A DNA stretch of 46,747 bases from Clostridia bacterium (GTDB lineage: Bacteria > Bacillota > Clostridia > Oscillospirales > Acutalibacteraceae), in the NCBI GenBank assembly GCA_017430965.1, contig JAFRLX010000053.1, positions 1-46,747 on the forward strand, written 5' to 3'. Numbering within the stretch: position 1 is the first letter of the stretch; every line of letters begins with the position of its first letter. Both the position numbers and the translations under genes were made by a program. Below the pieces are notes generated by a model. That model worked only from the letters and a program-made list of their open reading frames with translations. It had not been told where the DNA came from and did not search any database. This document shows positions 15,812-40,243 of the stretch, piece after piece.

Positions 15812-15893
15812 GCAGCGCATAGCGCTGCATTTTAATGTGCCGCAAGCGGCACCACCATTAATTCCGCATTCCGAACTCCGCATTCCGCATTAA
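15812..15893. repeat. Palindromic and direct-repeat element between eutE and eutM
   Basis: Two perfect hairpins, GCAGCGC-ATA-GCGCTGC (15812-15828) and GTGCCGC-AA-GCGGCAC (15837-15852), are followed by short direct repeats of the pattern ATTCCGCATTCCG (about 15861-15892). The second hairpin shares its core with 2931-2946, and a degenerate copy of the CGCATT repeat lies at about 27355-27372 ahead of deoB. This is a dispersed intergenic element. In the transcript the hairpins could protect or separate the eutM message. Confidence 0.6.
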
Positions 15894-15894
15894 G

Positions 15895-17559: not shown

Positions 17560-17709
17560 GGTTCGTATCTCCTGTTATATTGAATTTGGTTTCATTTACT
17601 TATTGTATAGATGCATCGGGTGCGGGTGTCCCTCTCGGCGGGAGCCTGTACCCTCTGTTATCTGCAATGATTTATCTTTTTTCATTGGTATTGGCTGCTT
17701 GCGGCAACA

Positions 17710-18363: not shown

Positions 18364-18372
18364 ATGCTTTCC

Positions 18373-19269: not shown

Positions 19270-19274
19270 TTACC

Positions 19275-20639: not shown

Positions 20640-20659
20640 AATACTTCCTCCGAGAATTT

Positions 20660-20712
20660 GGATAAAAGGGGTCGAACCTGAATAGGTTTCTGTTGCCTTT
20701 TTTACCCTATCC
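20660..20712 (-). other. Nested stem-loop between eutA and eutB
   Basis: The outer arms GGATA/TATCC and AAAGG/CCTTT enclose an inner hairpin with arms AACCT and AGGTT and a 4-base loop. The structure covers the eutA stop codon and ends about 12 bases before the eutB ribosome binding site. There is no T run, so it is not a terminator. An mRNA processing or stability element is possible. Confidence 0.4.
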
Positions 20713-24490: not shown

Positions 24491-25785
24491 GTCACTTCTC
24501 CCATGATTAAGGCGCGTTTCTGCGGCGGTGTATCGCTAAACGAAACAGCGTTTAGAAACTGTTCACAACTCACGCTTTTTACGGTTTCGCGGTTGGTGTA
24601 AAGGGTGGCAAGCGGTGCGCCCTCTTTCACGAAATCTCCGGTTTTTGCGTGTAAAACAATACCGGCGCTCATATCAATGCTATCTTCTATTTTCTCTCTG
24701 CCGGCACCTAACAGTGCGGCGGTTTTACCGATGTTTTCGGCATCCATTTTGGCAATATAGCCGGGTTGCGGCGCACAAACCTCTACCGCTAACGCTGTTT
24801 CGGGGAACAGAGCGGGGTTTTCAATATAGCGCACATCACCGCCTTGTGCGGCAACCATTTGTTTGAACTTTTCGTAGGCTGCGCCGCTTGCAAGGGCAGT
24901 TTCGGCAAGGTGTGCGGCTTCCTCTTTTGCACAACCCCGTGAGAGGGAAATAATGTTTGTCGCCAAAGCAAGGCACAGGGTTTTTAAATCCTTCGGACCA
25001 TCCCCGTGCAATACGGCAAGCACTTCTTTTATTTCAAGGTTGTTGCCGATATGTGTGCCGAGCGGGGTATCCATATCGGTAATAAGCGCGGCGGTTTTTT
25101 TGCCGTTCGCCTTGCCGATATTCACCATCGCTTTTGCCAACGCCGCGGCATCCTCCGGCGTTTTCATAAATGCGCCCGACCCGGTTTTGACATCTAATTC
25201 AATGATGTCGGCACCGGCGGCAAGTTTTTTGCTCATAATGCTGGAGGCAATTAAGGGAATGGAATTTACCGTGGCGGTGACATCGCGCAGGGCATATAAA
25301 ATCTTATCGGCAGGCACCATGTTTTTGGATTGTGAGATAATGGCAATGCCGATATGCTTTACCTGCTCAAAAAATGCCGTGTCACTCAACCCCGTGTTGA
25401 AACCGGGAATGCTTTCCAATTTATCAATCGTGCCGCCGGTATGCCCCAAGCCTCTGCCGCTCATTTTGGCAATGTTTACCCCGCATGCCGCCGCAACGGG
25501 CGCCACAATGAGCGATGTTTTATCGCCCACACCGCCGGTGGAATGTTTGTCGGCAGTGGGGGAAAGAGATGATAAATCCAACATATCGCCGCTATGCGCC
25601 ATTTTATCGGTCAAAACCGCGGTTTCAGCCGCATTCATGCCGTTTAAACAAATTGCCATCAACAGTGCGCTTGCCTGGTAATCGGCAACCGTGCCGTCAC
25701 AAATGCCGTCTATAAAAAAAGCAATTTCGGCTTCACTTAATGCGTTGTTTTGCTTTTTCTTTTCAATAATTTCAATAATATTCAT
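24487..25785 (-). CDS. deoA: Pyrimidine-nucleoside (thymidine) phosphorylase
   Basis: Phosphorolysis of thymidine, deoxyuridine or uridine to the base and (deoxy)ribose-1-phosphate in the cytoplasm. The 432-residue protein has the family's KHSTGGVGDKTSL phosphate-binding motif near residue 81, MSGRGLGHTGGTIDKLESI near 109, and a C-terminal domain with AGIVLHAKTGDFVKEGAPLATLYT. Gram-positive enzymes of this type (Pdp) often take both uridine and thymidine, so pdp is an equally valid name. It overlaps cdd upstream and the peptidase-like gene downstream by 4 bases each. Confidence 0.94.
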   Translation of the reverse strand: MNIIEIIEKKKQNNALSEAEIAFFIDGICDGTVADYQASALLMAICLNGMNAAETAVLTDKMAHSGDMLDLSSLSPTADKHSTGGVGDKTSLIVAPVAAACGVNIAKMSGRGLGHTGGTIDKLESIPGFNTGLSDTAFFEQVKHIGIAIISQSKNMVPADKILYALRDVTATVNSIPLIASSIMSKKLAAGADIIELDVKTGSGAFMKTPEDAAALAKAMVNIGKANGKKTAALITDMDTPLGTHIGNNLEIKEVLAVLHGDGPKDLKTLCLALATNIISLSRGCAKEEAAHLAETALASGAAYEKFKQMVAAQGGDVRYIENPALFPETALAVEVCAPQPGYIAKMDAENIGKTAALLGAGREKIEDSIDMSAGIVLHAKTGDFVKEGAPLATLYTNRETVKSVSCEQFLNAVSFSDTPPQKRALIMGEVT

Positions 25786-26174
25786 AGTGTAAATCCCTCC
25801 GGCAATAACTGTGTTAGTGTCAATGTGCGCCAGTCGCTTCCGTTATATAAAATAATTTCAAAATTCGGTTTGCAAAATTCACTTAAAACTTGTCGGCAGA
25901 TGCCGCAGGGCGGGCAAAAATCGGTGATGTTGCCGTCCTTTCCGCCGATGATGAGCATGCGCACAAAATCTCGCTTCCCCTGTGCCACGGCGGCGGCAAG
26001 TGCGCCGCGTTCGGCGCAGAGCGTGGCGCCGTAAGAAGCGTTTTCCACATTCACACCCGTAAAAACACTGCCGTCGGCACATTCGAGTGCAGCGGCTACA
26101 TAAAAACAAGAGTAGGGCGCATAGGCGTTTTGCAAAGCGGCTTTTGCCTGCTTTAATAATGTTTCGTTCATCAT
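25782..26174 (-). CDS. cdd: Cytidine deaminase
   Basis: Deaminates cytidine and deoxycytidine to uridine and deoxyuridine, feeding the pyrimidine phosphorylase next door. The 130-residue length fits the small tetrameric class, and the zinc site is visible as TLCAERGAL (Cys ligand and catalytic Glu) and PPCGICRQVL (two Cys ligands). The N-terminus has the expected YAPYSCFYVAAAL. It sits between deoB and deoA, overlapping deoA by 4 bases. Confidence 0.94.
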   Translation of the reverse strand: MMNETLLKQAKAALQNAYAPYSCFYVAAALECADGSVFTGVNVENASYGATLCAERGALAAAVAQGKRDFVRMLIIGGKDGNITDFCPPCGICRQVLSEFCKPNFEIILYNGSDWRTLTLTQLLPEGFTL

Positions 26175-26179
26175 TTCTC

Positions 26180-27340
26180 CTATAGTTTATTTAAAAAACT
26201 GTGTGTCGGAATATCGTTTTCAACCGCAAAGTTTTCCAATACAGTTTTGGCAATGCACGAAAAGCCGGTGAGTGTACCGAGGTTTTGAGGCTTAACCCGT
26301 TTTCCGATGCACAACAGCGGCACGCATTCTCTTGAATGGTCGGTGCTCGGGGTTGCCGGGTCACAACCGTGGTCGGCGGTGATAAGCAGTAAATCGTCCG
26401 CGTGCATTTTTGCCGTAAAATGCGGTAGCCAAGTGTCAAACACCGTGAGGGCGTTCGCATAGCCGTCAACATCGTTGCGGTGCCCGTAAAGCATATCAAA
26501 ATCCACAAGGTTTACAAAGCAAAGACCGGTAAACGCCTTTTCAAGCATGGTTTCGCTTGCCGCCATTCCCTCGGCGTTTGAGTGTGTGAGGGTGTGTTCA
26601 CGGATGCCCCGGTGGGCAAAAATATCATAGATTTTGCCAACGCTGATGGTGTCAAAACCGTGTTGCATCAGCAAATCAAGCATGGTGTTTTGCGGCGGCG
26701 CCAGTGAAAAATCTCGCCTGTCCGCCGTGCGCACATAAGTGCCGTTTTGCGTCGCAAACGGGCGGGCAATCACTCTGCCGACGGCGTGTTTGCCGGTGAG
26801 TATGTTTCTCGCCTTTTCGCATGCCGCATACAGTTCCTCCAAGGGAATGACAGCCGTATTTGCGGCAATTTGGAACACGGAATCTGCCGAGGTATACACA
26901 ATAAAAGCGCCGCTTTGCTCCTGCTCTTCGCCATAGTCTTGTATCACGGCGGTACCGCTGTAAGGCTTGTTACAAATCACATTTCTGCCGGTGGCGGTTT
27001 CAAATGCCTGCACAATTTCTTGCGGAAAGCCGTGCGGATAGGTCGGCAGGGGTGTTTGCGAGACCAATCCCGCAATTTCCCAATGCCCGATGGTGGTGTC
27101 TTTCCCGGCGCCAGCTTCTTGCAGGCGCGCATAGGCACTGCAGGGCGCCGCCGTGCCGGGCAAGGTGACACCGTCAATATTAAACAGCCCGTGCCGCTTT
27201 AAATGCGGCAGGGAAAAGTAAGGCGAGGCGGCACACGAAAGCAGGGTGTTGGCGCCGCTGTCGCCAAAGGCTTCGGCATCGGGCGCATTGCCGATACCGA
27301 AGGAGTCTAAAACGATAATAAAAATGCGTTGGAAAAACAT
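26180..27340 (-). CDS. deoB: Phosphopentomutase
   Basis: Interconverts (deoxy)ribose-1-phosphate and (deoxy)ribose-5-phosphate with manganese, linking the phosphorylases to DeoC. The 386-residue protein belongs to the alkaline-phosphatase superfamily. Metal-binding stretches are visible as VLDSFGIGNAPDA near the N-terminus, KDTTIGHWE (phosphothreonine loop) near residue 90, and TADHGCDP and DHSRECVPLL towards the C-terminus. The ATG has no good ribosome binding site, and the 61-base gap from deoD holds a degenerate intergenic repeat. Cdd follows 5 bases later. Confidence 0.94.
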   Translation of the reverse strand: MFFQRIFIIVLDSFGIGNAPDAEAFGDSGANTLLSCAASPYFSLPHLKRHGLFNIDGVTLPGTAAPCSAYARLQEAGAGKDTTIGHWEIAGLVSQTPLPTYPHGFPQEIVQAFETATGRNVICNKPYSGTAVIQDYGEEQEQSGAFIVYTSADSVFQIAANTAVIPLEELYAACEKARNILTGKHAVGRVIARPFATQNGTYVRTADRRDFSLAPPQNTMLDLLMQHGFDTISVGKIYDIFAHRGIREHTLTHSNAEGMAASETMLEKAFTGLCFVNLVDFDMLYGHRNDVDGYANALTVFDTWLPHFTAKMHADDLLLITADHGCDPATPSTDHSRECVPLLCIGKRVKPQNLGTLTGFSCIAKTVLENFAVENDIPTHSFLNKL

Positions 27341-27401
27341 AGTCTTTTTTCAATGCGGAATACGCAATGAGCGGTTGCAAGGCAGAGCCTTGGCGCAAAT
27401 G

Positions 27402-28124
27402 TTACTTTTCTAAATCAACGGCGGTTTCGAGGGCTAAGCGCATCATGTCCGTAAAGCCCTGTTCTCTTTCTTCACCGGAGAGGTGTTCATCGTTTAAAAG
27501 TTGGTCGGAAACCGTGCAGATGCACAGTGCGTGTTTGCCGGCAGCCGCAGCGTTCATGTAGAGCGCAGCCGCTTCCATTTCAATGGCGAGCACGCCCATG
27601 GCGCTCCATTTTTGAATCATTTCCGGGGTTTCGCCGTAGAAGGCATCGGAGGAGAGAATGTTGCCCGCAAAGGTTTTTTCTGTCAGCGACAGGCGCGCGG
27701 CGGTGCGCATGCAGCTTTCCAGCAGCGGGTAAGAGCAAATGGCGCTGTAATCACCGCCCAAGTCATATTGGTGCGCAAAGCGCGAGGTGGTGCTTGCACC
27801 CATGCCGACAACCAAATCGCGCAGGTTCACCCGCTCGCTGATAGCGCCTGCCGAGCCGATGCGGATGATGTTTTCCACATCATAAAAATGATAGAGTTCG
27901 TAAGAATAAATCGCCATCGAAGGCATGCCCATGCCGGAAGCCATCACACTGACAGGGGTGCCTTTGTAGCTGCCGGTATAGCCTTGAATGCCTCTGACAT
28001 CATTGACAAGGCGCGCGTTCTCCAAAAAATGCGTGGCAATATAGCGGGCGCGCTTCGGGTCGCCCGGCATTAAAACGGTTTTGGCAAAGTCGCCTTTTGC
28101 GGCGCTGTTATGAGCAGTTGGCAT
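27402..28124 (-). CDS. deoD: Purine nucleoside phosphorylase (DeoD type)
   Basis: Splits purine (deoxy)nucleosides with phosphate into base and (deoxy)ribose-1-phosphate. The 240-residue protein is of the hexameric, low-molecular-weight family: MPGDPKRARYIA near the N-terminus (phosphate loop), GMGMPSMAIYSYEL near residue 65, GSAGAISERVNLRDLVVG in the centre, and AIEMEAAALY, which binds the ribose. It shares one base with the deoC stop (TAATG) and its ribosome binding site GGAGGA lies within deoC, so the two are coupled. Confidence 0.95.
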   Translation of the reverse strand: MPTAHNSAAKGDFAKTVLMPGDPKRARYIATHFLENARLVNDVRGIQGYTGSYKGTPVSVMASGMGMPSMAIYSYELYHFYDVENIIRIGSAGAISERVNLRDLVVGMGASTTSRFAHQYDLGGDYSAICSYPLLESCMRTAARLSLTEKTFAGNILSSDAFYGETPEMIQKWSAMGVLAIEMEAAALYMNAAAAGKHALCICTVSDQLLNDEHLSGEEREQGFTDMMRLALETAVDLEK

Positions 28125-28780
28125 TATACATGTTCCTCCTTCACAAGTTTGACAATGCGGCTGGTGCCGAGGCGGTCGGCGCCTTCACGAATAAACCGCT
28201 CGGCATCTTCCAAAGAAGCAATGCCGCCTGCGGCTTTGATTTTGAGAGGCGGCGCAATGTGCGCTTTGAACAGGAGAATGTCCTCGTGCGTTGCGCCGCT
28301 TTTGGAAAAGCCGGTGCTGGTTTTGATGTAATCGGCACCGCTGCGGCTGACCAGTTCACACATTTTGATTTTCTCATCTTCGGTTAATAAACAGGTTTCA
28401 ATAATGACCTTCAGCACCTTGCCTTTGCACGCGGCGCGCACGGCTTTGATATCCTCCAAAACCGCATCATACTGCTTTTGTTTGAGCGCGCCGATGGCGA
28501 TGACCATGTCAATTTCATCGGCACCGTTTTTGACGGCATCCTCGGTCTCAAACACTTTGGCTGCAGTGGTACTGTAGCCGGTCGGGAAGCCGATAACCGT
28601 GCAGATGTTCACCTTGCCGGCGGCATAGTCGGCTGCCGCTTTGACAAAGCGGGCGGGAATGCACACACTCGCACAGCGGTAGCGCACACCGTCATCCACC
28701 ACGCTGCGAATTTGCTCCCAAGTGCTCTCAGGCGCCAACAGGGTGTGGTCGGTTTTGCTTAAAATCAGTTGTGTATCCAT
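28124..28780 (-). CDS. deoC: Deoxyribose-phosphate aldolase
   Basis: Cleaves 2-deoxyribose-5-phosphate to glyceraldehyde-3-phosphate and acetaldehyde. The 218-residue TIM-barrel protein carries the Schiff-base lysine in DYIKTSTGFS near residue 153 and the second active-site lysine in KAAGGIAS near 182, with VIGFPTGYSTTAAKVFE near 62. It is the first gene of the nucleoside operon, behind a strong promoter at 28818-28846. The acetaldehyde it makes is the substrate of EutE in the neighbouring operon. Confidence 0.95.
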   Translation of the reverse strand: MDTQLILSKTDHTLLAPESTWEQIRSVVDDGVRYRCASVCIPARFVKAAADYAAGKVNICTVIGFPTGYSTTAAKVFETEDAVKNGADEIDMVIAIGALKQKQYDAVLEDIKAVRAACKGKVLKVIIETCLLTEDEKIKMCELVSRSGADYIKTSTGFSKSGATHEDILLFKAHIAPPLKIKAAGGIASLEDAERFIREGADRLGTSRIVKLVKEEHV

Positions 28781-28884: not shown

Positions 28885-28913
28885 GTTGACAAATAGCCAC
28901 CCAAACAATATAA
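28885..28913 (+). promoter_or_regulatory. Consensus promoter of the CotH-domain gene
   Basis: A perfect TTGACA (28885-28890), a 17-bp spacer and a perfect TATAAT (28908-28913) lie about 70 bases before the ATG at 28985. Their position inside the upstream extension of the open frame shows that the extension is not translated. Confidence 0.85.
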
Positions 28914-28984
28914 TGGATATATGTAATATTTTTTTTATTATTTGTAACCTTTATGAAACATTATCCAAATTTGGAGGAGTAAAT

Positions 28985-31900
28985 ATGCTGCAATCGGCTT
29001 TTAAACGAACGCTCAGCGTTTTGTTGATACTTACATTGGCGGCGTCTTTTCTTTTTTGCACACCGTTAGGTGCCTTTGCACAAGAGGACGAGGCGGCGCA
29101 TTTTTCTGCGGAATATGTGGACCCTGCTAAGGCGCTGGAAGTTGTCTATACCGTGCCCGCAGGTGTCAAAGCAGAGTATCGCTGGTATGTCGGCAATGCT
29201 CTCAGAGCAAAAGGCACGGCAAGTACTTTTGCCGTTACCGAGAAAGATAAGGGCAATATGATTCGCTGCGAGATTTGGGATGCAAAGAAAATGCTTTCTT
29301 CCTGTGAGATTTTTTACAGTGAGTTGCCGGTGGTCTATCTCAACACCCGAACCGGTGCGCCGATTGATTCCAAAGAGCAGTATGTCGATGCCGATGTGCG
29401 CATTGCGGGCAACAGCCGGTTTAACAGCACCAACACCACGCTGTATGACGGCGCCTGCACCACTAAGGGGCACGGCAATTCCACCTGGGCGCATTTCGAA
29501 AAAAAGGCGTATAAATTAAAATTAGATAAGAAAACCGATTTGTTCGGCATGGGCAAGAACAAAAGCTGGTTACTGATTGCCAACTATTTGGATGAAAGCA
29601 ACATGCGCAATAAGCTCGCTTCCTACTGTGGCGAGCTGTTGGGCACCGATTCCATGGATTCCCGCTGGGTAGACCTTGTCATTAACGGGCAATATATGGG
29701 ATTGTATGAATTGACCGAACAGGTGAAGATTGCCAAAGAGCGTGTCAATATCTTTGACTGGGAGGATGCTGCCGGCGACATTGCCAAAAACATTGTCAAA
29801 GAACAGGCGCTGACCGAGCAGGATGAGGATGCGCTCAAAGACTTGCTCGAGCAGGATATGAGCTGGATGACAAGCGGCACAGTCACCTATGCCGGCAAAA
29901 CCTATGCGGTAAAAGATTATTACAAGAAGCTTCCCGCTTCCACCAACGGCGGATTTTTGATTGAAATGGACAACTATTACGATGAAATCAGCCGTTTCAG
30001 AACAAGCAGAGAAGTGCCGCTGATGGTCAAATCTCCCGAATACCTCAACACAAATGAGGCGGTATTCCAAGAGCTGCAAAACTATTTGCAGGAGCTTGAG
30101 GACTGCTTTTATGCACAGGATAAAACCATCCAAAAGCAGGGGCAGGTTCTCTCTTATGCCGATTACTGCGATATGGAAAGCCTCGTATCCTTCTGGTTTG
30201 CCAGCGAATTTATGAGAAATGAAATCGGCTTCAACAGCACCTATATGTACAAGGATGTTGACCAAAAGCTGGTTTTCGGACCGATTTGGGATTTTGACTT
30301 TTCTTCGGATTCCGTGGTGCCTTTCGGCGGCTCGAGCGCCGTTACTTGGGCAACCAAGAACCGGGTGTGGTTTAACGCCGTCATGCAAAGCCCGTATTTT
30401 GCAGTCAAGGCAAGAGAGCTTTACTACGAAAAAGAGCCGGAGCTTGCCGCTGTGCTGGATGCCGACGGTTTACTCGAAATCTGGCATGCCTATGTGCAGA
30501 ATTCCGCGCTGCGCAATGAAGCCAAGTGGAAGTGCTCGAGAACCTTTGAAGAGGACTATGCAAAGCTCAGAGACTATCTGCAGGCGCGCCTTAGCTGGAT
30601 AGATGCGCAATTCCAAAGCGATGACAGCGCGCTCATTTCCCTGGGCGGCAGTGTGAGCGAGAGCATTTCTCTTGCGCCGAGCGACTCATCCATTAAAAAT
30701 GCAGGGCAAAAGGCCTTTGTGCAAACGGCAGCGGCACCCTTTGATTTGCAGGTGGAAACCGCCAATACCGCGCGCACATCGGCTGCCTTATACATCAACA
30801 GCCGCTATGTCGGCACTTACCCGCTCAGCGAGGGCAAGGCGAGCATTGCGGTTGACCCGGCACTGCTGACAGAAAAAGAGGGCACAAAAAATGTGCTTGA
30901 GGTGTGGACAAAGGATGCCGCAGGCAATTTATGTGAGCATCAGTTCTGCACACTTACCGTGAGCGATAAAGCGGTGCATACCCTGCGCTTGAGCGATGGT
31001 GCCACCACCACCGAACAGGCTTTCCTGAGCGGAGAGCGCATTTGGCTGCCGAAGCCCGACAGCGCAACCGCACTCTTTAGCGCGTGGGAAAATGAGGGCA
31101 GTTTGCTTGCCGGCGGCAGCTACATTGCGCCGACTGCCGATGCGGCACTGACCGCCGTGTACACACCCTGCACCGCGGGCGCGGCACACAGCTTTACAGT
31201 GACTAAGGATGCCTGTGTTTGTGCGGTGTGCGGCAAGAGCAAAGAGGACACCGCGCCGTATACCGATGTGCGTGACCTCAGCATTACCCCGAATATCAAG
31301 TACAGTAATTCCTACACCGGCGAAGCCATTCGCCCGATTGTCACAGTGGCAGATGGTGAAAAAGTGCTTCAAGAGGGGAAGGATTACACCATTTCCTATA
31401 AAAATAATATCAATGTCGGTTTCGGCACTTACAAAATAGAAGGCATCAAATCTGCCGGCTATTGCGGCACGGTGGAATTGATTTTTGGTATCGTGCCGGT
31501 CAATATCGGCTACAAAACAGTCGGCTATGAATTTTTAAAGGCTCCGTATTTCTACACCGGAAAGCCGATAGAACCGAAACTCAAAATCACCTATCTCGGT
31601 AAGACCTTAAAAGAAGGTAAGGATTACCGCTTAGAGTATGAAAACAACATCAAACCCGGCAGCAGAACCGGTATCGTGAAGGTTTACGGCCTCGGCAACT
31701 TTGCAAAATATACCACAGCCAAAACCATTCACTTTACTATCGGCAAAGTACCGATTGCTTCGTGCAATCCCGCGCTTTCCTTCACCTGTGCCAACTACAC
31801 GGGCAAGGCAATAAAACCTGCGGTCAGCTTTAAGGCGGCAAAGGGCTTAAAGCTCGGCAGGGATTACACGGTGATTTATCAGTATAATGTCAAAATCGGC

Positions 31901-32263
31901 ACAGCGAAGGTAACCGTTTACGGCAAAGGAAATTACGGCGGAAAGTCGGTCAGGTACTTTAAAATCGGACCGAAGCCGACTGCAATTTCTTCACTGCGCT
32001 CCCCTGCGAAAAAGCAAATGAAGGTAATTTATAAGAGGCCGACAACCTCATTAACCGGTTACCAAATCATTTACTCCGACAGAAAAGATTTTAAGAAATT
32101 CGTCACAGTGAATGTAAAAGGGTATTATAATACCTCTAAATTGATTAAAATGAGCCGGTATTACCCAATCTTATATGTCAAAGTCAGAACCTATAAAATC
32201 GTGAATGGAACTGCGTATTTCAGTTCCTTCTCTCCGACAAAAGCGGTTCGCATTAAGAAGTAA
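28985..32263 (+). CDS. Secreted CotH kinase-like domain protein with Ig-like repeats
   Basis: Large exported protein (1092 residues). The ATG at 28985 follows GGAGG and begins a signal peptide (residues 1-32, ending GAFA-Q). After a short N-terminal domain, residues about 117-540 match the CotH family, with KGHGNSTW near 161, YKLKLDKK, ANYLDESNMRNKLA and GPIWDFDFSSD near 432, where CotH kinases bind metal and ATP. A B-repeat-like segment and a CxxC knuckle (about 755) follow. Three Ig-like repeats come next, each with YTGK/E.I.P and G(K/R)DY, at about 772-840, 850-920 and 930-995. A fibronectin-like end closes the protein. CotH proteins phosphorylate spore-coat proteins in Bacillus; here the modules imply the cell surface. 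No LPXTG or SLH anchor is visible. Confidence 0.85.
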   Translation: MLQSAFKRTLSVLLILTLAASFLFCTPLGAFAQEDEAAHFSAEYVDPAKALEVVYTVPAGVKAEYRWYVGNALRAKGTASTFAVTEKDKGNMIRCEIWDAKKMLSSCEIFYSELPVVYLNTRTGAPIDSKEQYVDADVRIAGNSRFNSTNTTLYDGACTTKGHGNSTWAHFEKKAYKLKLDKKTDLFGMGKNKSWLLIANYLDESNMRNKLASYCGELLGTDSMDSRWVDLVINGQYMGLYELTEQVKIAKERVNIFDWEDAAGDIAKNIVKEQALTEQDEDALKDLLEQDMSWMTSGTVTYAGKTYAVKDYYKKLPASTNGGFLIEMDNYYDEISRFRTSREVPLMVKSPEYLNTNEAVFQELQNYLQELEDCFYAQDKTIQKQGQVLSYADYCDMESLVSFWFASEFMRNEIGFNSTYMYKDVDQKLVFGPIWDFDFSSDSVVPFGGSSAVTWATKNRVWFNAVMQSPYFAVKARELYYEKEPELAAVLDADGLLEIWHAYVQNSALRNEAKWKCSRTFEEDYAKLRDYLQARLSWIDAQFQSDDSALISLGGSVSESISLAPSDSSIKNAGQKAFVQTAAAPFDLQVETANTARTSAALYINSRYVGTYPLSEGKASIAVDPALLTEKEGTKNVLEVWTKDAAGNLCEHQFCTLTVSDKAVHTLRLSDGATTTEQAFLSGERIWLPKPDSATALFSAWENEGSLLAGGSYIAPTADAALTAVYTPCTAGAAHSFTVTKDACVCAVCGKSKEDTAPYTDVRDLSITPNIKYSNSYTGEAIRPIVTVADGEKVLQEGKDYTISYKNNINVGFGTYKIEGIKSAGYCGTVELIFGIVPVNIGYKTVGYEFLKAPYFYTGKPIEPKLKITYLGKTLKEGKDYRLEYENNIKPGSRTGIVKVYGLGNFAKYTTAKTIHFTIGKVPIASCNPALSFTCANYTGKAIKPAVSFKAAKGLKLGRDYTVIYQYNVKIGTAKVTVYGKGNYGGKSVRYFKIGPKPTAISSLRSPAKKQMKVIYKRPTTSLTGYQIIYSDRKDFKKFVTVNVKGYYNTSKLIKMSRYYPILYVKVRTYKIVNGTAYFSSFSPTKAVRIKK

Positions 32264-32316: not shown

Positions 32317-35300
32317 ATGAAACCGAAAGCAGTTTTCAAAAAAGCGTTTCTCATTTTCCTCAGTGTCGTGATGGTATTTTCATCCGTACCTGTGTTTGCA
32401 GTGTTTTCCGGCGCTGCGACGAGAAATGAGAAAACCGGTATCACCGTTTACGGCGAGACCGAAAATGCAGTCGTTTCCGGTGCTGTTGAGAAAAAAATCA
32501 ACATGAGAAACGAAAACAATGAGAATGTAAAAGGTTACATGCTCACCCTTACTCCCAGTACGGCAACCGGACTGAGAGCCAGCTATAAGGACTATTACGG
32601 CAAGGGCAAGACCAAGGATACCCGTGCCAAGGCAGCACAAAGCTGGAGCAGGTGGGGCATGCAGAAGATGACCGACCAGGCAAAGGCCTATGAAGCTTCT
32701 TCTGACATTGACGGCCAGGTGGTATTTGCCACCAACGGCGACTACTATAATATGGCAAACGGCCAGCCTTTAGGCAGCTGTATTATGGAAGGCAATGCGG
32801 ACATTAACCCGAACAATGAAGAGCCTTATTTCGCATTGCTCAAAGACGGAACTTGTGCAGTTCGCGAATCTTCCGTTCCGAAAACAGATGTTCAAGAATG
32901 TATCGCCGGTCCGTTCTTACTTTTAAAAGATGGTGTGAACCAATTTTCACCTGACAACAAAGATTTAATGCCGCGTAACTCTGTTGGCGTAAAAGCTGAC
33001 GGTACGGTGGTATTCTTTGAAGTAGACGGTCGCCAGGAAACCAGTGTCGGCATGACTTTATGCGAATTGGCGGAAATGCTCAAGGATGAAGGCTGTGTCG
33101 ATGCGCTCTACTTAGATGGCGGCGGCTCGGCAACCTTTGCCACCAAGCGTGAAGGGGAAGACGCCTTAAGCGTTAAGAACAGCCCGAGTGACGGTACGGA
33201 AAGAACCGTTTCCAGCGGTATGCTCCTTGTGAGCAACGCCGGTAGCGATGATACTTTTGATCATGCAAAACTTTCTCCGAAAAACGAAATCTACACCCCC
33301 GGTTCCGAAGTGCAGTTTACCGCTATCGGTATCGGCAATTCCGGCAAGAAAGTAGATTTGCCGGAGGGTTGCACCTTTGTTTTGGCTGAGGACAGCAAAG
33401 ATTTGGGTATCATTGACCCGAACACCGGTGTGTTTACGGCAAATGAAGCATATGCAGGCGAAGCCAAAACCGTGAATGTGCAGCTTTTACAAGGTGCGCG
33501 CAAGGTCGGCGAAACCAAAATTATCATTGCAGTGCCCGATGAACTCAGATTTTCCACCGATTCCATTACCTTGGATTACGGTGAACAGAGCACGCTCGGC
33601 TTCAGCGCTTACTACCAAGCCAGAGAAATCAATTATAAAGACGGCGACTTCAATTGGAGCTTTGAAACCATCCAAACCTCCGACCAGAGCGCTACCATCG
33701 GTCATGTAGAAAGCGATAATATCTTTGTCGCTACCGAAAACAATGAAGCCGGCAACCTTTCCATTCAAGGCAAGGTGACGGCAACCTCCAAGTGGGATAA
33801 CGCCGTTGCAAATTCCATTACAGTCGGTGTCGGTATGAAGCCCGTGATTGTTATGGACGGCGGCGACGGTACGGAAGCTACTCCGCTTAACTACAATAAC
33901 ATTGCATATACTCATGCTGCGGCAGACGGCGGCGGTATTGCTTACGAAACCCACCCGGATGACCATGGCGATGTTATCGTTTGCCACTACATTAACGGTG
34001 ACGGCAGCAGCCGCGGCGGTATTGCTTCCGCTGAGGTCGTTGACCGCGATACCGGTATGGTCAGAAAAGGCCAGCACGCCTTGAAACTCAATTATGACTT
34101 CTCCAATACCAACGGTATTGAGGGTGCCTGTGTCGGTTTCTCCAATGATATCGTCATTGAAGGCAGCCCCTCGGCAGTCGGTATTTGGGTGTATGCACCC
34201 GAAGGCACACCGAACCTGTGGCTGAGATTGCGCTGCAGAGCCGGCGGCTCGGACCCCTCGAACCCGATTAAAACCCTTGACTTTACCGAACGCGCCGACC
34301 AGGCGACCGACGGCACTCACGGCGGTATCAACTGGACCGGCTGGAGGTACCTCGAATGTAAGCTGTCAGACGTGGCAAAGCCCATTGTGTTGTTGGCAGG
34401 CGAAACCTTCCGCGTGATGGATACTGTCAATTCTTACGGCAGAATGGGTCGCTGGGTCTGCACCAAGGATGATGCGGGCAATGTCTCCGAGGCAATTGAG
34501 TATCCGAACGGCTTAAAGGGCTCGTTATACATTGACAATATGTCCTTTGTTTACGGTAGTGCGGCAGAGGATGTGGATAACCCGAAGATTAACGATATCA
34601 AAGTCGGTCCCGATATGCAGCACTTAGATACCATCGATGCAGAGGGTAAGAGCGTTGTTGAGTCCAACAAAGTCAGTTTTTCTGCTGAGTTTGCCGATGT
34701 ACATAACAAACTTTCCACCGGCATTGAGTATGCTTATTTATACCTTGACGGTGTGAATATGACCAAAAAGTTTAAAGATACAGAAAATGAGCATTACGCC
34801 GAGAATTTGGCTGACGGTAAGATGTCATTAAGTGATATGACACTTGCCAACGGTACCCATACGGTCACCCTTTTGGCGGTGGACGGTAATGACAATGAAG
34901 CATCCGTTACCAGAACCTTTACGGTGAAGGGGAACGATGAAAGCTTAACCTCCGTGGACATCGACAGCGCTGCACAAGCAGAGCTCGGCAAGGATTTTGC
35001 TCTCAAACTCGATTCCAATAAGTTGGAGGATGTGAAAAACGTTGAAGCGAATATCGTTGTCAGCGAAGAAACTCCGATTAAGGAAGTCAAATTTGCGGAT
35101 GGTTACGAGGGCACCTATGAGGCAAACGGCAACAAGGTCAATATCAAAGCCGCAAAAACCGGAGAGCAGACCGGTGAAGGCACCATTGCCACCATTATCC
35201 TCGATGTGCCTCACACCGTTCCCGAAGGCTATTACCTGAATTATAAAGTTGAAAACGGCACGGTTGAATATGCACAAGAAAAGGATGATTCCTTTGCCAA

Positions 35301-38300
35301 CACCTTTGCGACCAGCACGGTGAAGGTTCCCGTGATTGCAAAATATACCGTGCAGGTGCAGACCAATGTGGTCGGCAGTGATTACGGCAGCATTTATGTG
35401 GCAGATGAAAACGGCAAGCCGGCATCCGGCGTTGCGGTTTACAGTGGCGATACCAAGTTGGGCACAACCGCGAAAGACGGTATTTGCAACACCAACGATT
35501 TTGTGGATGCGGTTCAGGAATTTACCGTTTACGCTAAGGGTAAGAACGGCTATTCCTTCGCCAAGAAGGCACAGAGCTTGAAGGCGTTAGGCGATGAGAG
35601 CGGTGCACCGTACCACATTATTGCCAATGCAACTTTAGATGCCTCTACTACAAAGAATATCGTTTGGATGTCCAATCCGAACACATCCGCGCAAAAGGCA
35701 GTGATGGAATATGCTGCTAAGAGCGACTACGAAGCCAAAGGCGAAGCGGCATTCACCGCTTTTGAAGGCAAGTGCACGCTTTCCGAATTTACCGCCAGCG
35801 GTAACATCAATGAAAACGGTGCGGTCTATGTTAAGGAAGCACTCCTGACAGGGCTGACTCCCGAGACAGAATACTGCTACCGCGTTGGCGACGGCAGCAT
35901 TTGGTCCGAAGTTAAGAGCTTTACGACTTACAAAGCATATAACAGAAAAGGCGGCAACAGCCTGAAGTTCTTTGTTATCGGTGATGCTCAAACAGATGAT
36001 GAAAACCTCAACAACCTCAAAAACATCATCAACGATACCAAGACCGGTTACGACCTCGGTACACAAATCGGTGATGCTGTAGAAACCCCGAAGCTCTATT
36101 CCGATTGGGATAACTTCTTAACACAGTTCAGTGTGTACGATGTAGACTTCCTGCATGCCATCGGTAACCACGAAACCTTCAGCGACGTGGGCGCGACCAA
36201 TGCAAACACTATCTTCGGCACACCGAATGACCGTTATTATTCCACAGTTTACGGCGGCGTTTATATCGCAACCGTAGCCTTCACACAGAACCGCGCAGAG
36301 TTGGAAGAAGCGGCTGCATGGTTGGCAGAGGATGCTGCAAAGGCAACCACACCGTGGAAGGTGCTCATTATGCACCAACCGCCTTACTACACCAATTCCG
36401 ACGGCGGCAACGAAATTATCCAAGAATTATTCGCACCGGCAGTAGACAAGGGCGGTATTGACTTTGTCTTCTCCGGTCACGACCACAGCTATGCGAGAAC
36501 CTATCCGCTGATTAACGGCGCTGTTGCCGAAGATTACAAGATGGCGGATAAGGGCGAAGCGGAAGTTACCGAATACAGCGGCGAGGGCGCAATCTACTAC
36601 ATCGCCGGCTCCACCGGTCAAAAGGCCTATCCGATTGACAAGCAGGTTGAGCACTTCGGTTTGTTCTCACAAGCAACGATTGATTTCGATTCTATTTATT
36701 TGTCTGTGGAAGCGGATGATGAATCCTTCACCGTTAAGACCATGGATGGTGAAATGGTTATCGACCAGTTCACCAAGTACAGCAAATCCAAGAGCTGTGC
36801 CCATTCCTATGACTACTATGATGCAGAGGATGAAGCGCTTCACTGCGAGAAGTGTGACAGAATCTATGACGCCAAGGAAATCGCTTACACCGGTCTTGTC
36901 AACGACAAGCAGACCGAAAAGCTGAGATTCTTGAAGGACGGCGAACCGCAAACCGGTATTCAAACCGTGCAGGATAAGGCGATTGTGTTTGATAACGACG
37001 GGCTTGCTTACGATGGCAAGTTTGAGATTGCCGGCACCGAATACACCTTCGAAAACGGTCAGCTTACCGCTTGCTCCGATGAAAATGCAGGCGAAGTCTT
37101 CTTCGGCTACTGCGGTGCAGATGCGGACGGCAGAAACCTTGTGTATGCTTACCAGCCCGGCAACAATGTTGTCAATATCGGCGTGAACCCGATGATGAAG
37201 AATCCTTCGGGCGAAATGAAGAATTGGGCTATCTTTAAGGATGTGCCGTGGCAGACCCACAGATTTACCATTGAAAAGTACAACATCGGCGAAGGCGTTA
37301 CCAGCATCGGCGATTATATGGCGTACATCTCTATCAACCCGGCACCCGAACAGCTGCAAGGTGTGGATTCCGTGCTCAGCGAAGTCAATCTCCCGAGCAC
37401 TCTGGAGAGAATCGGTACTTCTGCATTTACCAACAATGCGAAGCTGACCAAGATTACGATTCCGGCTAAGGTTTCCTATATCGGTACAGGTGCATTCAGA
37501 TTGATTCCGGGCATCAAAGTGACCATGCTGGGCACCAAGGCACCCGAAGTGCCGGAAGGCACCTCTGCTTTCGCCAAGTGCGGTTCAAACGCCGTGCTCA
37601 GCGTTCCGTGCAGCACACAATGGCACCGTGCCATCGTCAACAAGGCATTCCACTTCCCGGGTGCGGTGAAGTATAGAGACCACGCAAAGAAGAGTTTGGT
37701 AACGACCAAGAAAGCCATCAGTTTGAAAGCAAAGGGCTCTGCGATTACCAAGTGCAGTGTTTGCGGTACAGTGATTGCTTCGAAGTATTATACCTTGAAC
37801 AAGGGCGCTAAATTTATGAGAGACAGTGCACAGTATCAGGTATCCGCAAAGGATAAGACCGTTAACTTAATCAGGTACACCAACAAGAAGGCGAGCAACG
37901 TTGTTATCGGCGCTGTGGTGAATTACGGCGGTGTGAAGTACACCGTTACCGGCATCGGCGCAAATGCATTTGCAGGCAAAAAGCTGATGAAGACCATTGT
38001 GTTGCCGGCAACCGTCAAGGTTATCGCCAGAGGCGCTTTCAACGGCTGTACAAACCTGAAGCTTGTGAAGTTTACCGGCACGGTTAAAGCATGGAAAGCC
38101 ATTAAGGTCGGCGGGTTGAACACACCGCTGCGCAAGGCAAAGGTCACTTGTTCTCAGAGTTTGAAGTGTGCGCTTGCCAAAACCAAGTATGCCTACACCG
38201 GCAAGGTGATTACACCGAAGGTAATTGTAAAGGATACCAGAGGCAAATTGTTGGTACAGAATAAGGACTACACCGTAACCTATGCAAAGGGCAGAAAGCT

Positions 38301-38394
38301 TGCCGGCAAGTATGCGGTCAAGGTTACATTTAAGGGCATTTATGCCGGTTCAAGAATGCTGTATTTCAACATCTATGTCAACGGCAAGGGCTGA
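32317..38394 (+). CDS. Giant secreted phosphodiester-glycosidase / purple-acid-phosphatase fusion
   Basis: A 2025-residue exported protein. A signal peptide (about 1-34) is followed by a phosphodiester glycosidase (NAGPA-like) domain at about 60-310, with NGDYYN near 141 and the glycine-rich LDGGGSATF near 266. Next come Ig-like repeats, a jelly-roll-like segment with GIWVYAPEGTPNLWLRL (about 510-750) and a cohesin-like segment (about 875-985). A fibronectin/purple-acid-phosphatase module follows at about 1105-1470, with metal motifs GDAQ (about 1221), GD, GNHE (about 1282), MHQPPYY and GHDHSYART (about 1386). CxxC knuckles, LRR_5-type repeats (about 1688-1740 and 1861-1931) and a terminal YTGK...DYTV module complete it. 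It follows the CotH gene by 53 bases. Confidence 0.85.
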   Translation: MKPKAVFKKAFLIFLSVVMVFSSVPVFAVFSGAATRNEKTGITVYGETENAVVSGAVEKKINMRNENNENVKGYMLTLTPSTATGLRASYKDYYGKGKTKDTRAKAAQSWSRWGMQKMTDQAKAYEASSDIDGQVVFATNGDYYNMANGQPLGSCIMEGNADINPNNEEPYFALLKDGTCAVRESSVPKTDVQECIAGPFLLLKDGVNQFSPDNKDLMPRNSVGVKADGTVVFFEVDGRQETSVGMTLCELAEMLKDEGCVDALYLDGGGSATFATKREGEDALSVKNSPSDGTERTVSSGMLLVSNAGSDDTFDHAKLSPKNEIYTPGSEVQFTAIGIGNSGKKVDLPEGCTFVLAEDSKDLGIIDPNTGVFTANEAYAGEAKTVNVQLLQGARKVGETKIIIAVPDELRFSTDSITLDYGEQSTLGFSAYYQAREINYKDGDFNWSFETIQTSDQSATIGHVESDNIFVATENNEAGNLSIQGKVTATSKWDNAVANSITVGVGMKPVIVMDGGDGTEATPLNYNNIAYTHAAADGGGIAYETHPDDHGDVIVCHYINGDGSSRGGIASAEVVDRDTGMVRKGQHALKLNYDFSNTNGIEGACVGFSNDIVIEGSPSAVGIWVYAPEGTPNLWLRLRCRAGGSDPSNPIKTLDFTERADQATDGTHGGINWTGWRYLECKLSDVAKPIVLLAGETFRVMDTVNSYGRMGRWVCTKDDAGNVSEAIEYPNGLKGSLYIDNMSFVYGSAAEDVDNPKINDIKVGPDMQHLDTIDAEGKSVVESNKVSFSAEFADVHNKLSTGIEYAYLYLDGVNMTKKFKDTENEHYAENLADGKMSLSDMTLANGTHTVTLLAVDGNDNEASVTRTFTVKGNDESLTSVDIDSAAQAELGKDFALKLDSNKLEDVKNVEANIVVSEETPIKEVKFADGYEGTYEANGNKVNIKAAKTGEQTGEGTIATIILDVPHTVPEGYYLNYKVENGTVEYAQEKDDSFANTFATSTVKVPVIAKYTVQVQTNVVGSDYGSIYVADENGKPASGVAVYSGDTKLGTTAKDGICNTNDFVDAVQEFTVYAKGKNGYSFAKKAQSLKALGDESGAPYHIIANATLDASTTKNIVWMSNPNTSAQKAVMEYAAKSDYEAKGEAAFTAFEGKCTLSEFTASGNINENGAVYVKEALLTGLTPETEYCYRVGDGSIWSEVKSFTTYKAYNRKGGNSLKFFVIGDAQTDDENLNNLKNIINDTKTGYDLGTQIGDAVETPKLYSDWDNFLTQFSVYDVDFLHAIGNHETFSDVGATNANTIFGTPNDRYYSTVYGGVYIATVAFTQNRAELEEAAAWLAEDAAKATTPWKVLIMHQPPYYTNSDGGNEIIQELFAPAVDKGGIDFVFSGHDHSYARTYPLINGAVAEDYKMADKGEAEVTEYSGEGAIYYIAGSTGQKAYPIDKQVEHFGLFSQATIDFDSIYLSVEADDESFTVKTMDGEMVIDQFTKYSKSKSCAHSYDYYDAEDEALHCEKCDRIYDAKEIAYTGLVNDKQTEKLRFLKDGEPQTGIQTVQDKAIVFDNDGLAYDGKFEIAGTEYTFENGQLTACSDENAGEVFFGYCGADADGRNLVYAYQPGNNVVNIGVNPMMKNPSGEMKNWAIFKDVPWQTHRFTIEKYNIGEGVTSIGDYMAYISINPAPEQLQGVDSVLSEVNLPSTLERIGTSAFTNNAKLTKITIPAKVSYIGTGAFRLIPGIKVTMLGTKAPEVPEGTSAFAKCGSNAVLSVPCSTQWHRAIVNKAFHFPGAVKYRDHAKKSLVTTKKAISLKAKGSAITKCSVCGTVIASKYYTLNKGAKFMRDSAQYQVSAKDKTVNLIRYTNKKASNVVIGAVVNYGGVKYTVTGIGANAFAGKKLMKTIVLPATVKVIARGAFNGCTNLKLVKFTGTVKAWKAIKVGGLNTPLRKAKVTCSQSLKCALAKTKYAYTGKVITPKVIVKDTRGKLLVQNKDYTVTYAKGRKLAGKYAVKVTFKGIYAGSRMLYFNIYVNGKG

Positions 38395-38494: not shown

Positions 38495-38532
38495 AATCGG
38501 GTGTGCAAACCGTTGCACACCCGATTATTTTT
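38495..38532 (+). terminator. Terminator after the giant phosphatase fusion gene
   Basis: A perfect 14-bp stem (AATCGGGTGTGCAA with TTGCACACCCGATT, 4-base loop) is followed by ATTTTTG. It lies about 100 bases after the stop. The rest of the 325-base gap (38395-38719) holds only the next promoter. Confidence 0.87.
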
Positions 38533-38719: not shown

Positions 38720-40243
38720 ATGGGAGAGAAAAAACTAAGTTCACTTCAAGATAATATCAGTGTGATGTTCATATTGAACCTCCTTAAAAAGGGCTGGAAA
38801 TTAATGGTTATTTTCATGCTCTTGGGTGCAGCGGCAGCATATGCAATTTCCACTTACTTTATTACGCCGCAGTATTCCTCTAATTTGAGTTTGTATGTTA
38901 CCAATTCCAGCACTATGAATGGTGCGAGCTCCTCTTCGGACTTAAACTATTCCTCAAGATTGGCGCGTACCTATATCATCATTTTGCAGGAAGCAACCGT
39001 TAGAGAGCAGGTTGCCAACAAGCTGCACACAAAGGTTTCTGCCGGTCAGCTTTCCTCTATGGTTACCTTGGAGTCGGTTGACGATACGGAAGTTATCAAA
39101 ATCAGCGCAACCAGCTCCGACCCTGAGCTTTCCGCAGAAATCTGCAATGTTTACGGTTCTGTGGCACCTGAGGTTTTGCAGAGAGTTGTAAAAGCGGGTT
39201 CTGTTGAAATTATCGGTAAAGCCAAGGCTTCCAGTTCGCCGATTTCTCCCAACATCCGCAACAATACACTCTATGGTGCGGCAGCCGGCGTGGCAGCTGC
39301 GATTATCGTGGTGCTTTTGAGAGTGCTGATTGATAACACCGTGCAAAGTGAAGAAGAATTCAAGAGAATTATCGGTATTCCCGTTTGGGCAAGCATCCCC
39401 AGCTTTACCAACAGCTCGAAGGATAAGCGCCATAAGGGTTCCGATGCGGCTGCATTGCGGCGTACCATCATCAATTCACAAACGCCCTTTGCAATCACAG
39501 AGGCGTACAAAAATGCGAGAACGAGTATGTCATTCTCCATTACCGATTCTTCCGCAAAAGCAGTGGTTATCACCTCTTGTGAGCCTGATGCGGGTAAATC
39601 CACCACGGTTGCAAACCTGGCTATGACCATGGCGAAAACCAATGCAAAAGTGCTTATTGTGGACTCTGACTTGAGAAAACCGATTCAGCACAAATACTTT
39701 AAGATTGACAACTCCAGAGGCCTTTCCGGCGTGTTGGCAGGTCACTACTCTGTCGGTTCCTGTATCAAGGAAGTGGCAAAGAACTTGTACCTGATGCCTT
39801 CCGGCGTTATTCCGCCGAACCCCTCGGAATTGATTGCTTCTCGAAATATGTCGCAGCTCATCAAAGAGCTTAAGAATGTTTATGACTACATCTTCTTCGA
39901 TGCACCGCCCGCAAGCGTGGTGACGGATGCTACCGTTTTGGCACCGAAGGTCGATGGCGTTGTATTCATCGTTCGCCAGAATCGTACCGAATACGGTGAT
40001 GTGCAGAAGATTATCGATGACATTCGCAGGTTGGATGGTAAGATTTTAGGTACCATTATTACCGACTCCTCGAACTTCTCCTCTATCGGTCTGTCAAGGT
40101 ATAAGGCTTACGATTACCATTACGGCGGCGTATCGATTAAGAACGACAGCGCCAAGAAACAGGCGGAGAGCTCTAAAGAGGCAGCGCCGAAGCTGACACC
40201 GGCACCCAAGGCGCCCAAGGACACCGGCGGCAATAAATCATAA
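38720..40243 (+). CDS. Polysaccharide co-polymerase fused to tyrosine kinase (Wzc-like)
   Basis: Controls chain length and export of capsule or exopolysaccharide. The 507-residue protein joins a Wzz/CpsC-like membrane part (transmembrane helices about 26-47 and 184-203 with an extracellular loop) to a CpsD-like bacterial tyrosine kinase. The kinase has Walker A SCEPDAGKST (286-295), Walker A' VLIVDSDLRK (311-320) and Walker B YIFFDAP (390-396). A tyrosine cluster, Y461, Y464, Y466 and Y468, is the likely autophosphorylation tail, followed by a Lys/Pro/Ala-rich end. In many Gram-positives the two halves are separate genes; here they are fused as in Wzc. No polymerase or flippase gene is adjacent. 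Confidence 0.9.
   Translation: MGEKKLSSLQDNISVMFILNLLKKGWKLMVIFMLLGAAAAYAISTYFITPQYSSNLSLYVTNSSTMNGASSSSDLNYSSRLARTYIIILQEATVREQVANKLHTKVSAGQLSSMVTLESVDDTEVIKISATSSDPELSAEICNVYGSVAPEVLQRVVKAGSVEIIGKAKASSSPISPNIRNNTLYGAAAGVAAAIIVVLLRVLIDNTVQSEEEFKRIIGIPVWASIPSFTNSSKDKRHKGSDAAALRRTIINSQTPFAITEAYKNARTSMSFSITDSSAKAVVITSCEPDAGKSTTVANLAMTMAKTNAKVLIVDSDLRKPIQHKYFKIDNSRGLSGVLAGHYSVGSCIKEVAKNLYLMPSGVIPPNPSELIASRNMSQLIKELKNVYDYIFFDAPPASVVTDATVLAPKVDGVVFIVRQNRTEYGDVQKIIDDIRRLDGKILGTIITDSSNFSSIGLSRYKAYDYHYGGVSIKNDSAKKQAESSKEAAPKLTPAPKAPKDTGGNKS

What the first reader, a model, noticed from the sequence alone, without database searches (positions are those of the whole stretch)
32317..38394. Single secreted protein fusing a phosphodiester glycosidase to a purple-acid-phosphatase domain
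Seen: one continuous 2025-residue frame with an NAGPA-type domain (NGDYYN, LDGGGSATF) and a full set of metallophosphatase motifs (GDAQ, GNHE, MHQPPYY, GHDHSYART). Known: NAGPA-family enzymes remove sugars joined by phosphodiester bonds and leave a phosphomonoester; purple acid phosphatases remove phosphomonoesters. Inferred: the fusion could carry out both steps on a phosphodiester-linked glycan such as a GlcNAc-phosphate cap, a phosphomannan or a teichoic-acid-like polymer. That would release both sugar and phosphate outside the cell. I do not know of a described system built this way.
Basis: partly seen in the sequence, partly recalled or inferred. Interest (0 to 1): 0.8.

Follow-up and report, generated by a model that had tools for sequence, protein, structure and literature searches.

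The report
Two-enzyme surface protein beside kinase gene
A gut-type Clostridia bacterium encodes one secreted protein carrying both a sugar-phosphate-cutting enzyme and a phosphatase-like enzyme; this combination is already known and widespread, but its repeated pairing with a secreted kinase gene is a fresh clue to what it does.

Summary
[quoted passage not shown] The motifs of both enzymes are kept in nearly all of 71 aligned fusion proteins. The novelty claim does not hold. NAGPA and phosphoesterase lie in one frame in 68 of 79 loci of a genome scan, in Bacillota and Actinomycetota. Two plasmid records name near-full-length homologues of the core "phosphodiester glycosidase family protein", and a 2024 paper mentions NAGPA fused to this class of secreted phosphoesterase. 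It is not a strict purple acid phosphatase: the usual tyrosine is Glu here, Asp in 65 of 71. Not found in print is a link to CotH, a secreted-kinase family. Best reading: a surface enzyme that strips phosphodiester-linked sugars, then phosphate, from a surface polymer or glycoprotein, with a kinase as partner in some Clostridia. Substrate and activity are untested.

The parts
28886..28914 (+). Perfect sigma-70-like promoter match (TTGACA, 17 nt, TATAAT) upstream of the CotH gene; its TTG is the start that the ORF listing chose for the CotH frame, so the real start is probably further down
   Evidence: (12 of 12 positions; but 10 promoter-like sites found in the region against 12.3 expected by chance)
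28985..32263 (+). CotH-family secreted kinase-like gene, probable start ATG 28985 behind TGGAGGAG; PF08757 domain at 29471-30601
   Evidence: (E 7.5e-28); the start is inference
32317..38394 (+). Fusion gene: NAGPA - Ig1 - Ig2 - CBM-like - Ig3 - cohesin-like - carboxypeptidase-regulatory-like - PAP_N/FN3 - calcineurin-like phosphoesterase - LRR_5 - C-terminal module; names of blocks without a Pfam match are mine
32317..32420 (+). Signal-peptide-like N-terminus (Lys-rich, then hydrophobic)
   Evidence: read from the sequence; no predictor was run
32716..33225 (+). NAGPA phosphodiester glycosidase domain (residues 134-303)
33841..34560 (+). CBM-like block (residues 509-748), found in both the NAGPA-only and the phosphoesterase-only half proteins; no Pfam match, fold not predicted
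35608..35928 (+). Pur_ac_phosph_N (FN3-like) domain (residues 1098-1204)
35956..36741 (+). Calcineurin-like phosphoesterase block (residues 1214-1475; Pfam match 1216-1392) with D1223, Q1225, D1253, E1256, N1284, H1285, H1353, H1388, H1390
37375..38088 (+). Two BspA-type leucine-rich repeat stretches (LRR_5), about residues 1687-1755 and 1862-1924
38167..38373 (+). C-terminal module (about residues 1951-2019), 49-58% identical to stretches in four other contigs of the same genome
38495..38526 (+). Terminator-like hairpin (14 pairs) after the fusion gene; none is listed on the + strand in the gap between CotH and the fusion gene
   Evidence: 16 terminator-like sites found in the region against 13.5 expected by chance; this is the longest stem on the + strand

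Best explanation
The protein is secreted and held at the cell surface. Its NAGPA domain hydrolyses a sugar-1-phosphate phosphodiester, freeing the sugar and leaving a phosphomonoester. Its binuclear metallophosphoesterase domain, a Pur_ac_phosph_N-associated calcineurin-like enzyme of the ShfP type, then removes that phosphate or cuts a neighbouring phosphoester. Ig, CBM-like and cohesin-like blocks between them bind the substrate polymer, and the C-terminal part (LRR_5 plus a repeat module here; choline-binding, FIVAR, FIVAR with LPXTG, or SLH in relatives) attaches the enzyme to the cell surface. In part of the Clostridia, including this genome, the gene is coupled to a secreted CotH-family gene, which suggests that the substrate is a phosphorylated surface protein or glycan, written by one enzyme and trimmed or erased by the other. 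Shown: domains, motifs, joint descent, recurrence, gene linkage. Inferred: activities, order of steps, substrate, surface location, role of the blocks, kinase-phosphatase cycle.
For: Pfam trio above cut-offs. NAGPA motifs shared with solved DUF2233/NAGPA proteins (3ohg E 1.5e-16, 6pki 5.2e-12). In 71 fusion proteins N140 is kept in 70, D142 in 66, R220 in 61, D237 in 63, D267, S271 and R296 in 71; D1223, Q1225 and D1253 in 71, N1284 in 69, H1285, H1353, H1388 and H1390 in 70. One-frame fusion in 68 of 79 loci, both halves in neighbouring frames in 3, one half only in 8. Correlated distances r = 0.81. CotH: the most recurrent cluster among 659 neighbour frames (9 loci), 10 of 79 loci with the window's CotH as query, 7 of them directly upstream; in the same 2869-aa frame in G066 and in the same frame (2665 aa) in G421. 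In the genomes searched for CotH, 4 of 11 CotH matches in the 8 CotH-bearing genomes with the full fusion are next to or inside it, against 0 of 26 in the 14 CotH-bearing genomes whose NAGPA protein lacks the phosphoesterase (positions compared; lack of PAP_N in the same frame checked for 11 of the 14 and seen for the other 3).
Against: No CotH was found in the fetched flanks of 69 of 79 loci, and seven genomes with the full fusion have none at all (G031, G044, G207, G313, G669, G956, G1081), so CotH is not obligatory. The window's CotH lacks the Asp at the site I take for B. subtilis D228 (Ile or, with another gap, Glu), so the kinase may be weak or dead here. In both proteins where CotH is fused, one conserved His of the phosphoesterase is Asp (GDDH). 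The CotH label is clustered on the tree (8 changes, shuffled mean 11.3, as few as 3 forced by well-supported branches), so the cases are not all independent. Half proteins exist alone, so neither domain strictly needs the other.
Confidence: 0.45

Rival explanations
1. Phosphate and sugar scavenging: the two domains attack different phosphoester bonds of teichoic acid or other phosphopolymers in the surroundings, and the fusion only keeps two nutrient enzymes on one anchor. No series reaction and no functional tie to CotH.
For: [quoted passage not shown] Halves exist alone (L109, L115, L117 with NAGPA to CBM; L113, L114, L118 with CBM to phosphoesterase). Anchoring tails vary.
Against: Joint descent of the two domains in 77 fusion proteins; the CotH linkage is not explained.
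Confidence: 0.3
2. Surface-conflict or adhesion protein: the enzymes modify polysaccharides of competing bacteria or phage receptors, with LRR_5 and Ig modules as diversifying adhesins.
For: PMC12419801 (passages) describes Bacillota proteins with a NAGPA plus prok-TelC core and diversifying binding domains and suggests biological conflict. Parts of the NAGPA region also match phage records, some annotated as tail proteins. C-termini are swapped.
Against: Pfam lists no further catalytic or toxin domain in the protein, nor in the 10 window neighbours scanned. The catalytic core is conserved.
Confidence: 0.12
3. The phosphoesterase domain is a phosphodiesterase rather than a phosphomonoesterase, so that both domains cut diesters from different sides (for example glycosyl-P and P-polyol bonds).
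For: The calcineurin-like superfamily includes the teichoic acid phosphodiesterase PhoD (stated in PMC11488536). The PAP tyrosine is missing.
Against: All ten solved chains matched by sequence are purple acid phosphatases or a diphosphonucleotide phosphatase.
Confidence: 0.3

Closest known systems
ShfP (YvnB) type secreted calcineurin-like phosphoesterases (Updegrove et al. 2024, PMC11488536)
   Same: Secreted, Ig domains, Pur_ac_phosph_N-type FN3 and calcineurin-like domain are named for this class; the paper states that members may be fused to NAGPA
   Different: B. subtilis ShfP as described there has a lamin tail domain and seven Ig domains and no NAGPA is listed for it; the window protein has NAGPA, CBM-like and cohesin-like blocks and LRR_5. 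I did not place it on the ShfP tree.
Annotated 'phosphodiester glycosidase family protein' of Pseudobutyrivibrio xylanivorans and Metabacillus dongyingensis (plasmid records)
   Same: Cover 92% of residues 1-1485 at 34% and 30% identity
   Different: C-terminal region not compared
Mammalian NAGPA (uncovering enzyme; 6pki and kin) and DUF2233 protein 3ohg
   Same: NAGPA domain motifs NG[DG], R, VDG, LDGGGS
   Different: The solved chains are 285-321 residues without a phosphoesterase domain; the mammalian enzyme acts in the Golgi (recalled)
Purple acid phosphatases (6git, 3zk4, 1xzw, 1kbp)
   Same: Sequence similarity to the PAP_N-phosphoesterase part, E 2.8e-8 to 3.8e-4
   Different: Tyr of the GDxxY motif is Glu here; first motif is GDxQ
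CotH-polyphosphate polymerase-DUF4956 accessory genes of Gram-positive pel clusters (PMC7112168, passages)
   Same: CotH-like genes beside extracellular polymer genes in clostridial and streptococcal species
   Different: No pel, polyphosphate polymerase or DUF4956 match among the 12 window proteins scanned with Pfam

Membership tests
NAGPA / phosphodiester glycosidase (PF09992) | Profile match above curated cut-off | tested here: met
   117.8 bits vs 25
NAGPA / phosphodiester glycosidase (PF09992) | Conserved motifs NGD/NGG, R, VDG, DGGGS | tested here: met
   Aligned to 3ohg and 6pki; conserved in most or all of 71 fusion proteins. Which residues are catalytic was not read: Das et al. 2013 is not held
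NAGPA / phosphodiester glycosidase (PF09992) | Hydrolysis of a sugar-1-phosphodiester | not testable with these tools
   needs assay
Purple acid phosphatase | Pur_ac_phosph_N domain followed by metallophosphoesterase | tested here: met
Purple acid phosphatase | Tyr metal ligand (GDxxY) that gives the purple colour | tested here: not met
   Glu in the window, Asp in 65 of 71; the alignment to 3zk4 puts Glu at its Tyr. That this Tyr is the ligand is recalled
ShfP-type secreted calcineurin-like phosphoesterase | Signal peptide, Ig or FN3 (Pur_ac_phosph_N) and calcineurin-like domain with conserved motifs | tested here: met
   signal peptide and Ig blocks by eye only
ShfP-type secreted calcineurin-like phosphoesterase | Position on the published tree of ShfP homologues | not tested
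   the ShfP sequence was not fetched
CotH kinase (neighbour gene) | PF08757 match | tested here: met
   98.4 bits, cut-off 23.8
CotH kinase (neighbour gene) | Catalytic Asp equivalents of B. subtilis D228 and D251 | tested here: inconclusive
   WDFD (taken for the D251 site) kept; at the site taken for D228 the window copy has no Asp, 11 of 14 aligned CotH have Asp and 2 have Glu. Loss of activity in D228Q and D251A is from passages of PMC7821199; B. subtilis CotH was not in the alignment, so the sites are inferred

The most novel reading that the evidence does not exclude
A three-enzyme extracellular system of gut-type Clostridia: a secreted CotH kinase, a phosphodiester glycosidase and a metallophosphoesterase, encoded side by side (as here) or as one polypeptide (G066, G421), that adds, uncovers and removes phosphate on a surface glycoprotein or glycan, a bacterial counterpart in logic to the making and uncovering of mannose-6-phosphate tags.
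Probability: 0.25. Interest if true: 0.7.

Novelty: new variant of a known kind. Interest (0 to 1): 0.42.

Why it matters
The NAGPA-phosphoesterase fusion occurs in many Bacillota and some Actinomycetota and is conserved over nine blocks, and the papers that I could search gave no substrate for it. The CotH linkage, by gene order and by direct fusion, is a genomic hint of what it works with, and makes a concrete test possible: does CotH phosphorylate the target that the fusion enzyme trims?

Tried and rejected
Chance or misassembly of the fusion: rejected by recurrence in other genomes, including a one-contig genome. Strict purple acid phosphatase: rejected by the missing Tyr. Phage origin: 36 phage records match, none over 80% of the protein. 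Link to the downstream Wzz/tyrosine-kinase-like gene (38720-40243): not recognised among the 13 neighbour clusters listed from 79 loci (clusters judged from representatives, not all run through Pfam). In-frame stops reported in four f32/g218 genomes: they lie at the end of the protein behind the GHDH motif and look like ordinary gene ends. Literature: nine searches. The one that paired CotH with NAGPA, phosphodiester glycosidase, ShfP and YvnB found 4 papers with two or more terms, 3 listed, none of the listed with CotH. One search found 102 papers, 15 listed. Only open-licence PMC text is held.

They completed the control (PAP_N absent from the frame in the 11 genomes tested; CotH searched in 13 further genomes) and moved its count from 0 of 23 in 11 genomes to 0 of 26 in 14. 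They also added two fusion-bearing genomes without CotH. I left the odds as they were, since the two results pull in opposite directions.
Full report
WHAT IS THERE. The window is one whole contig (C66) of an incomplete genome, 2.4 Mb in 167 contigs, 86.9% complete. ORF 32317-38394 (+) encodes 2025 residues in one open frame. Pfam finds NAGPA (134-303), Pur_ac_phosph_N (1098-1204), Metallophos (1216-1392) and LRR_5. The genome has one NAGPA match and 12 Metallophos matches. The N-terminus looks like a signal peptide by eye.

THE CORE IS A CONSERVED UNIT. Five proteins from three other genomes (G009, G031, three copies in G044) have the same Pfam trio and align to residues 1-1485 at 30-37% identity. 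I cut that alignment into nine blocks (NAGPA, Ig1, Ig2, CBM-like, Ig3, cohesin-like, carboxypeptidase-regulatory-like, PAP_N, phosphoesterase; names of blocks without a Pfam match are mine and rest on the look of the sequence, not on a fold) and searched the fetched loci with profiles of them. In the genome-contig scan 246 stretches matched a pattern, 157 encoded a relative, the best 80 were kept, giving 79 loci. Of these 79, 68 have NAGPA and phosphoesterase in one frame, 3 have them in two neighbouring frames (L089, L092, L107), and 8 have one half only (L096, L109, L113, L114, L115, L117, L118, L121), some of them on short contigs that may cut the gene. The organisms include Terrisporobacter, Longicatena, Lacrimispora, Acetitomaculum, Levilactobacillus, Sporolactobacillus, Fictibacillus, Peribacillus, Paenibacillus, Micromonospora and Collinsella, and many unnamed Clostridia. 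The scan used two short patterns, from the CBM-like and the phosphoesterase block, so it favours proteins that have them and gives no unbiased frequency. In even samples, own genome included, 28 of 295 genomes of the order match the core alignment at E 1e-60, of which at least six cover both enzymes in one frame (G000, G044, G066, G133, G207, G313; weaker pieces are not listed); 14 of 391 genomes of the class and 5 of 398 of the phylum match at E 1e-100, several of them over one half only. So the full fusion is sparse within lineages but spread over phyla.

ANCHORING VARIES. Behind the core the window has LRR_5 and a C-terminal module; G009 has choline-binding repeats; G031 has FIVAR and Big_2; of the three G044 copies one has FIVAR with an LPXTG match at the cut-off and two have FIVAR; G066 has SLH. 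This fits a surface enzyme whose attachment is swapped and whose core is kept.

MOTIFS. Across 71 fusion proteins, the window included, NAGPA residues N140 (70), D142 (66), R220 (61), D237 (63), D267 (71), S271 (71), R296 (71) and phosphoesterase residues D1223 (71), Q1225 (71), D1253 (71), N1284 (69), H1285 (70), H1353 (70), H1388 (70), H1390 (70) are kept. Position 1256 is Asp in 65 of 71 and Glu in the window; aligned to 3zk4 it is that enzyme's Tyr. That this Tyr is the iron ligand of purple acid phosphatases is recalled. The domain is therefore PAP-like, not a proper PAP.

JOINT DESCENT. Pairwise distances of the NAGPA block and of PAP_N plus phosphoesterase over 77 fusion proteins correlate at r = 0.81; the highest of 999 permutations is 0.12. 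Permutation ignores shared ancestry, so this shows joint descent of the two domains, not a shared substrate.

THE KINASE LINK. The gene directly upstream (probable start 28985, stop codon ending at 32263, 53 bp gap) encodes a CotH-family protein (E 7.5e-28), one of two CotH matches in the genome. A perfect promoter-like site lies at 28886-28914 and a 14-pair terminator-like hairpin at 38495-38526, with none listed on the + strand in the gap; such sites are about as frequent here as in shuffles, so this is weak support for an operon. Among 659 neighbour frames of the 79 loci, CotH was the most recurrent cluster (9 loci; the next has 6). A search with the window's CotH adds L052, making 10 of 79 loci (L052, L054, L055, L057, L061, L065, L066, L067, L082, L090). 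Pfam was run on 8 of the 11 CotH frames of these loci and matched PF08757 in all 8. Seven loci have it directly upstream with a short gap or an overlap, L055 has it 1.6 kb upstream, L054 and L065 directly downstream. In G066 CotH is in the same 2869-aa open frame as NAGPA and phosphoesterase, and in G421 in the same frame, 2665 aa from its ATG; the two are 42% identical.

CONTROL. CotH was searched in the own genome and in 47 handles (21, 13, 13), which hold every genome listed with a core match, plus G007, G009 and G031. Eight CotH-bearing genomes with the full fusion (G000, G009, G066, G133, G421, G398, G448, G370) hold 11 CotH matches, of which 4 are next to or inside the fusion. Fourteen CotH-bearing genomes whose NAGPA protein lacks the phosphoesterase (G007, G231, G211, G296, G241, G132, G074, G402, G476, G665, G536, G116, G121, G174) hold 26 CotH matches, none near it: other contigs, or 77 kb and more away. 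Two of the 26 are pieces of one frame (G665) and one is a fragment with a stop (G536). For the first eleven, no PAP_N match lies in the frame of the NAGPA match; for the last three the whole frame was seen. The match in G132 starts within 1 kb of a contig end, where a neighbour could be missed; contig ends were not checked for the rest. G871, with the phosphoesterase half only, has one CotH-like match below the cut-off on another contig.

RESULTS AGAINST THE KINASE READING. 69 of 79 loci show no CotH in the fetched flanks, some of which are cut by contig ends. Seven genomes with the full fusion have no CotH match (G031, G044, G207, G313, G669, G956, G1081), and in four more it lies elsewhere (G133, G398, G448, G370). 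On a quick tree of 77 fusion proteins (G421 not included) the CotH label (12 rows) needs 8 changes, 3 of them forced by well-supported branches, and 1 of 500 shuffles was as low: the trait is clustered, so the cases are not all independent. The window's nearest relative, L082 (53% identity), also has CotH upstream. The window's CotH has no Asp at the position that I take for B. subtilis D228, whose change to Gln inactivates CotH (PMC7821199, passages); 11 of 14 aligned CotH have Asp, 2 Glu, the window Ile, or Glu if the gap is set otherwise. In both triple fusions the phosphoesterase reads GDDH where 70 of 71 fusion proteins keep the first His. So in single genomes one of the partners may be dead.

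WHAT IS KNOWN. PMC11488536 (section 7 with the Fig. 2 legend read in full, other passages; [quoted passage not shown] PMC12419801 (passages) describes another NAGPA pair, with prok-TelC. PMC7112168 (passages) reports CotH-like genes with a polyphosphate polymerase and DUF4956 beside pel clusters. Searches listed no paper joining CotH and NAGPA. Two plasmid records hold homologues over 92% of the core, named phosphodiester glycosidase family protein.

VERDICT.

Noticed in passing
L158 4186-12792 (G066) and L175 6302-14299 (G421): Single polypeptides with NAGPA, phosphoesterase and CotH domains; in both the phosphoesterase reads GDDH instead of GHDH, while the CotH Asp at the site taken for D228 is present.
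   Followed up: partly
window 38167-38373: About the last 70 residues match stretches in other frames of the same genome (contigs C147, C82, C119, C93) at 49-58% identity, and the neighbouring CotH protein has look-alike repeats by eye: a surface module of unknown role.
   Followed up: no
window 14494-22137: Ethanolamine utilisation cluster on the minus strand (EutT-like, acetaldehyde dehydrogenase, EutL, EutC, EutB, EutA).
   Followed up: no
window 24487-28780: Nucleoside breakdown cluster on the minus strand (pyrimidine nucleoside phosphorylase, cytidine deaminase, metalloenzyme-superfamily protein, nucleoside phosphorylase, DeoC-like aldolase).
   Followed up: no
window 38720-40243: Wzz chain-length domain and P-loop tyrosine-kinase-like domain in one protein, behind the terminator-like hairpin of the fusion gene.
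   Followed up: partly
L065 14034-16466: CotH protein with a weak C-terminal dockerin match (21.2 bits, below the cut-off of 22.9) beside a fusion protein that carries a cohesin-like block.
   Followed up: no
L089 and L107: In two Levilactobacillus copies the fusion gene is interrupted by a single in-frame stop; intact copies exist in sister species.
   Followed up: partly
L047, L048, L051, L062, L101: A second NAGPA-bearing frame lies next to the fusion gene in these loci.
   Followed up: no
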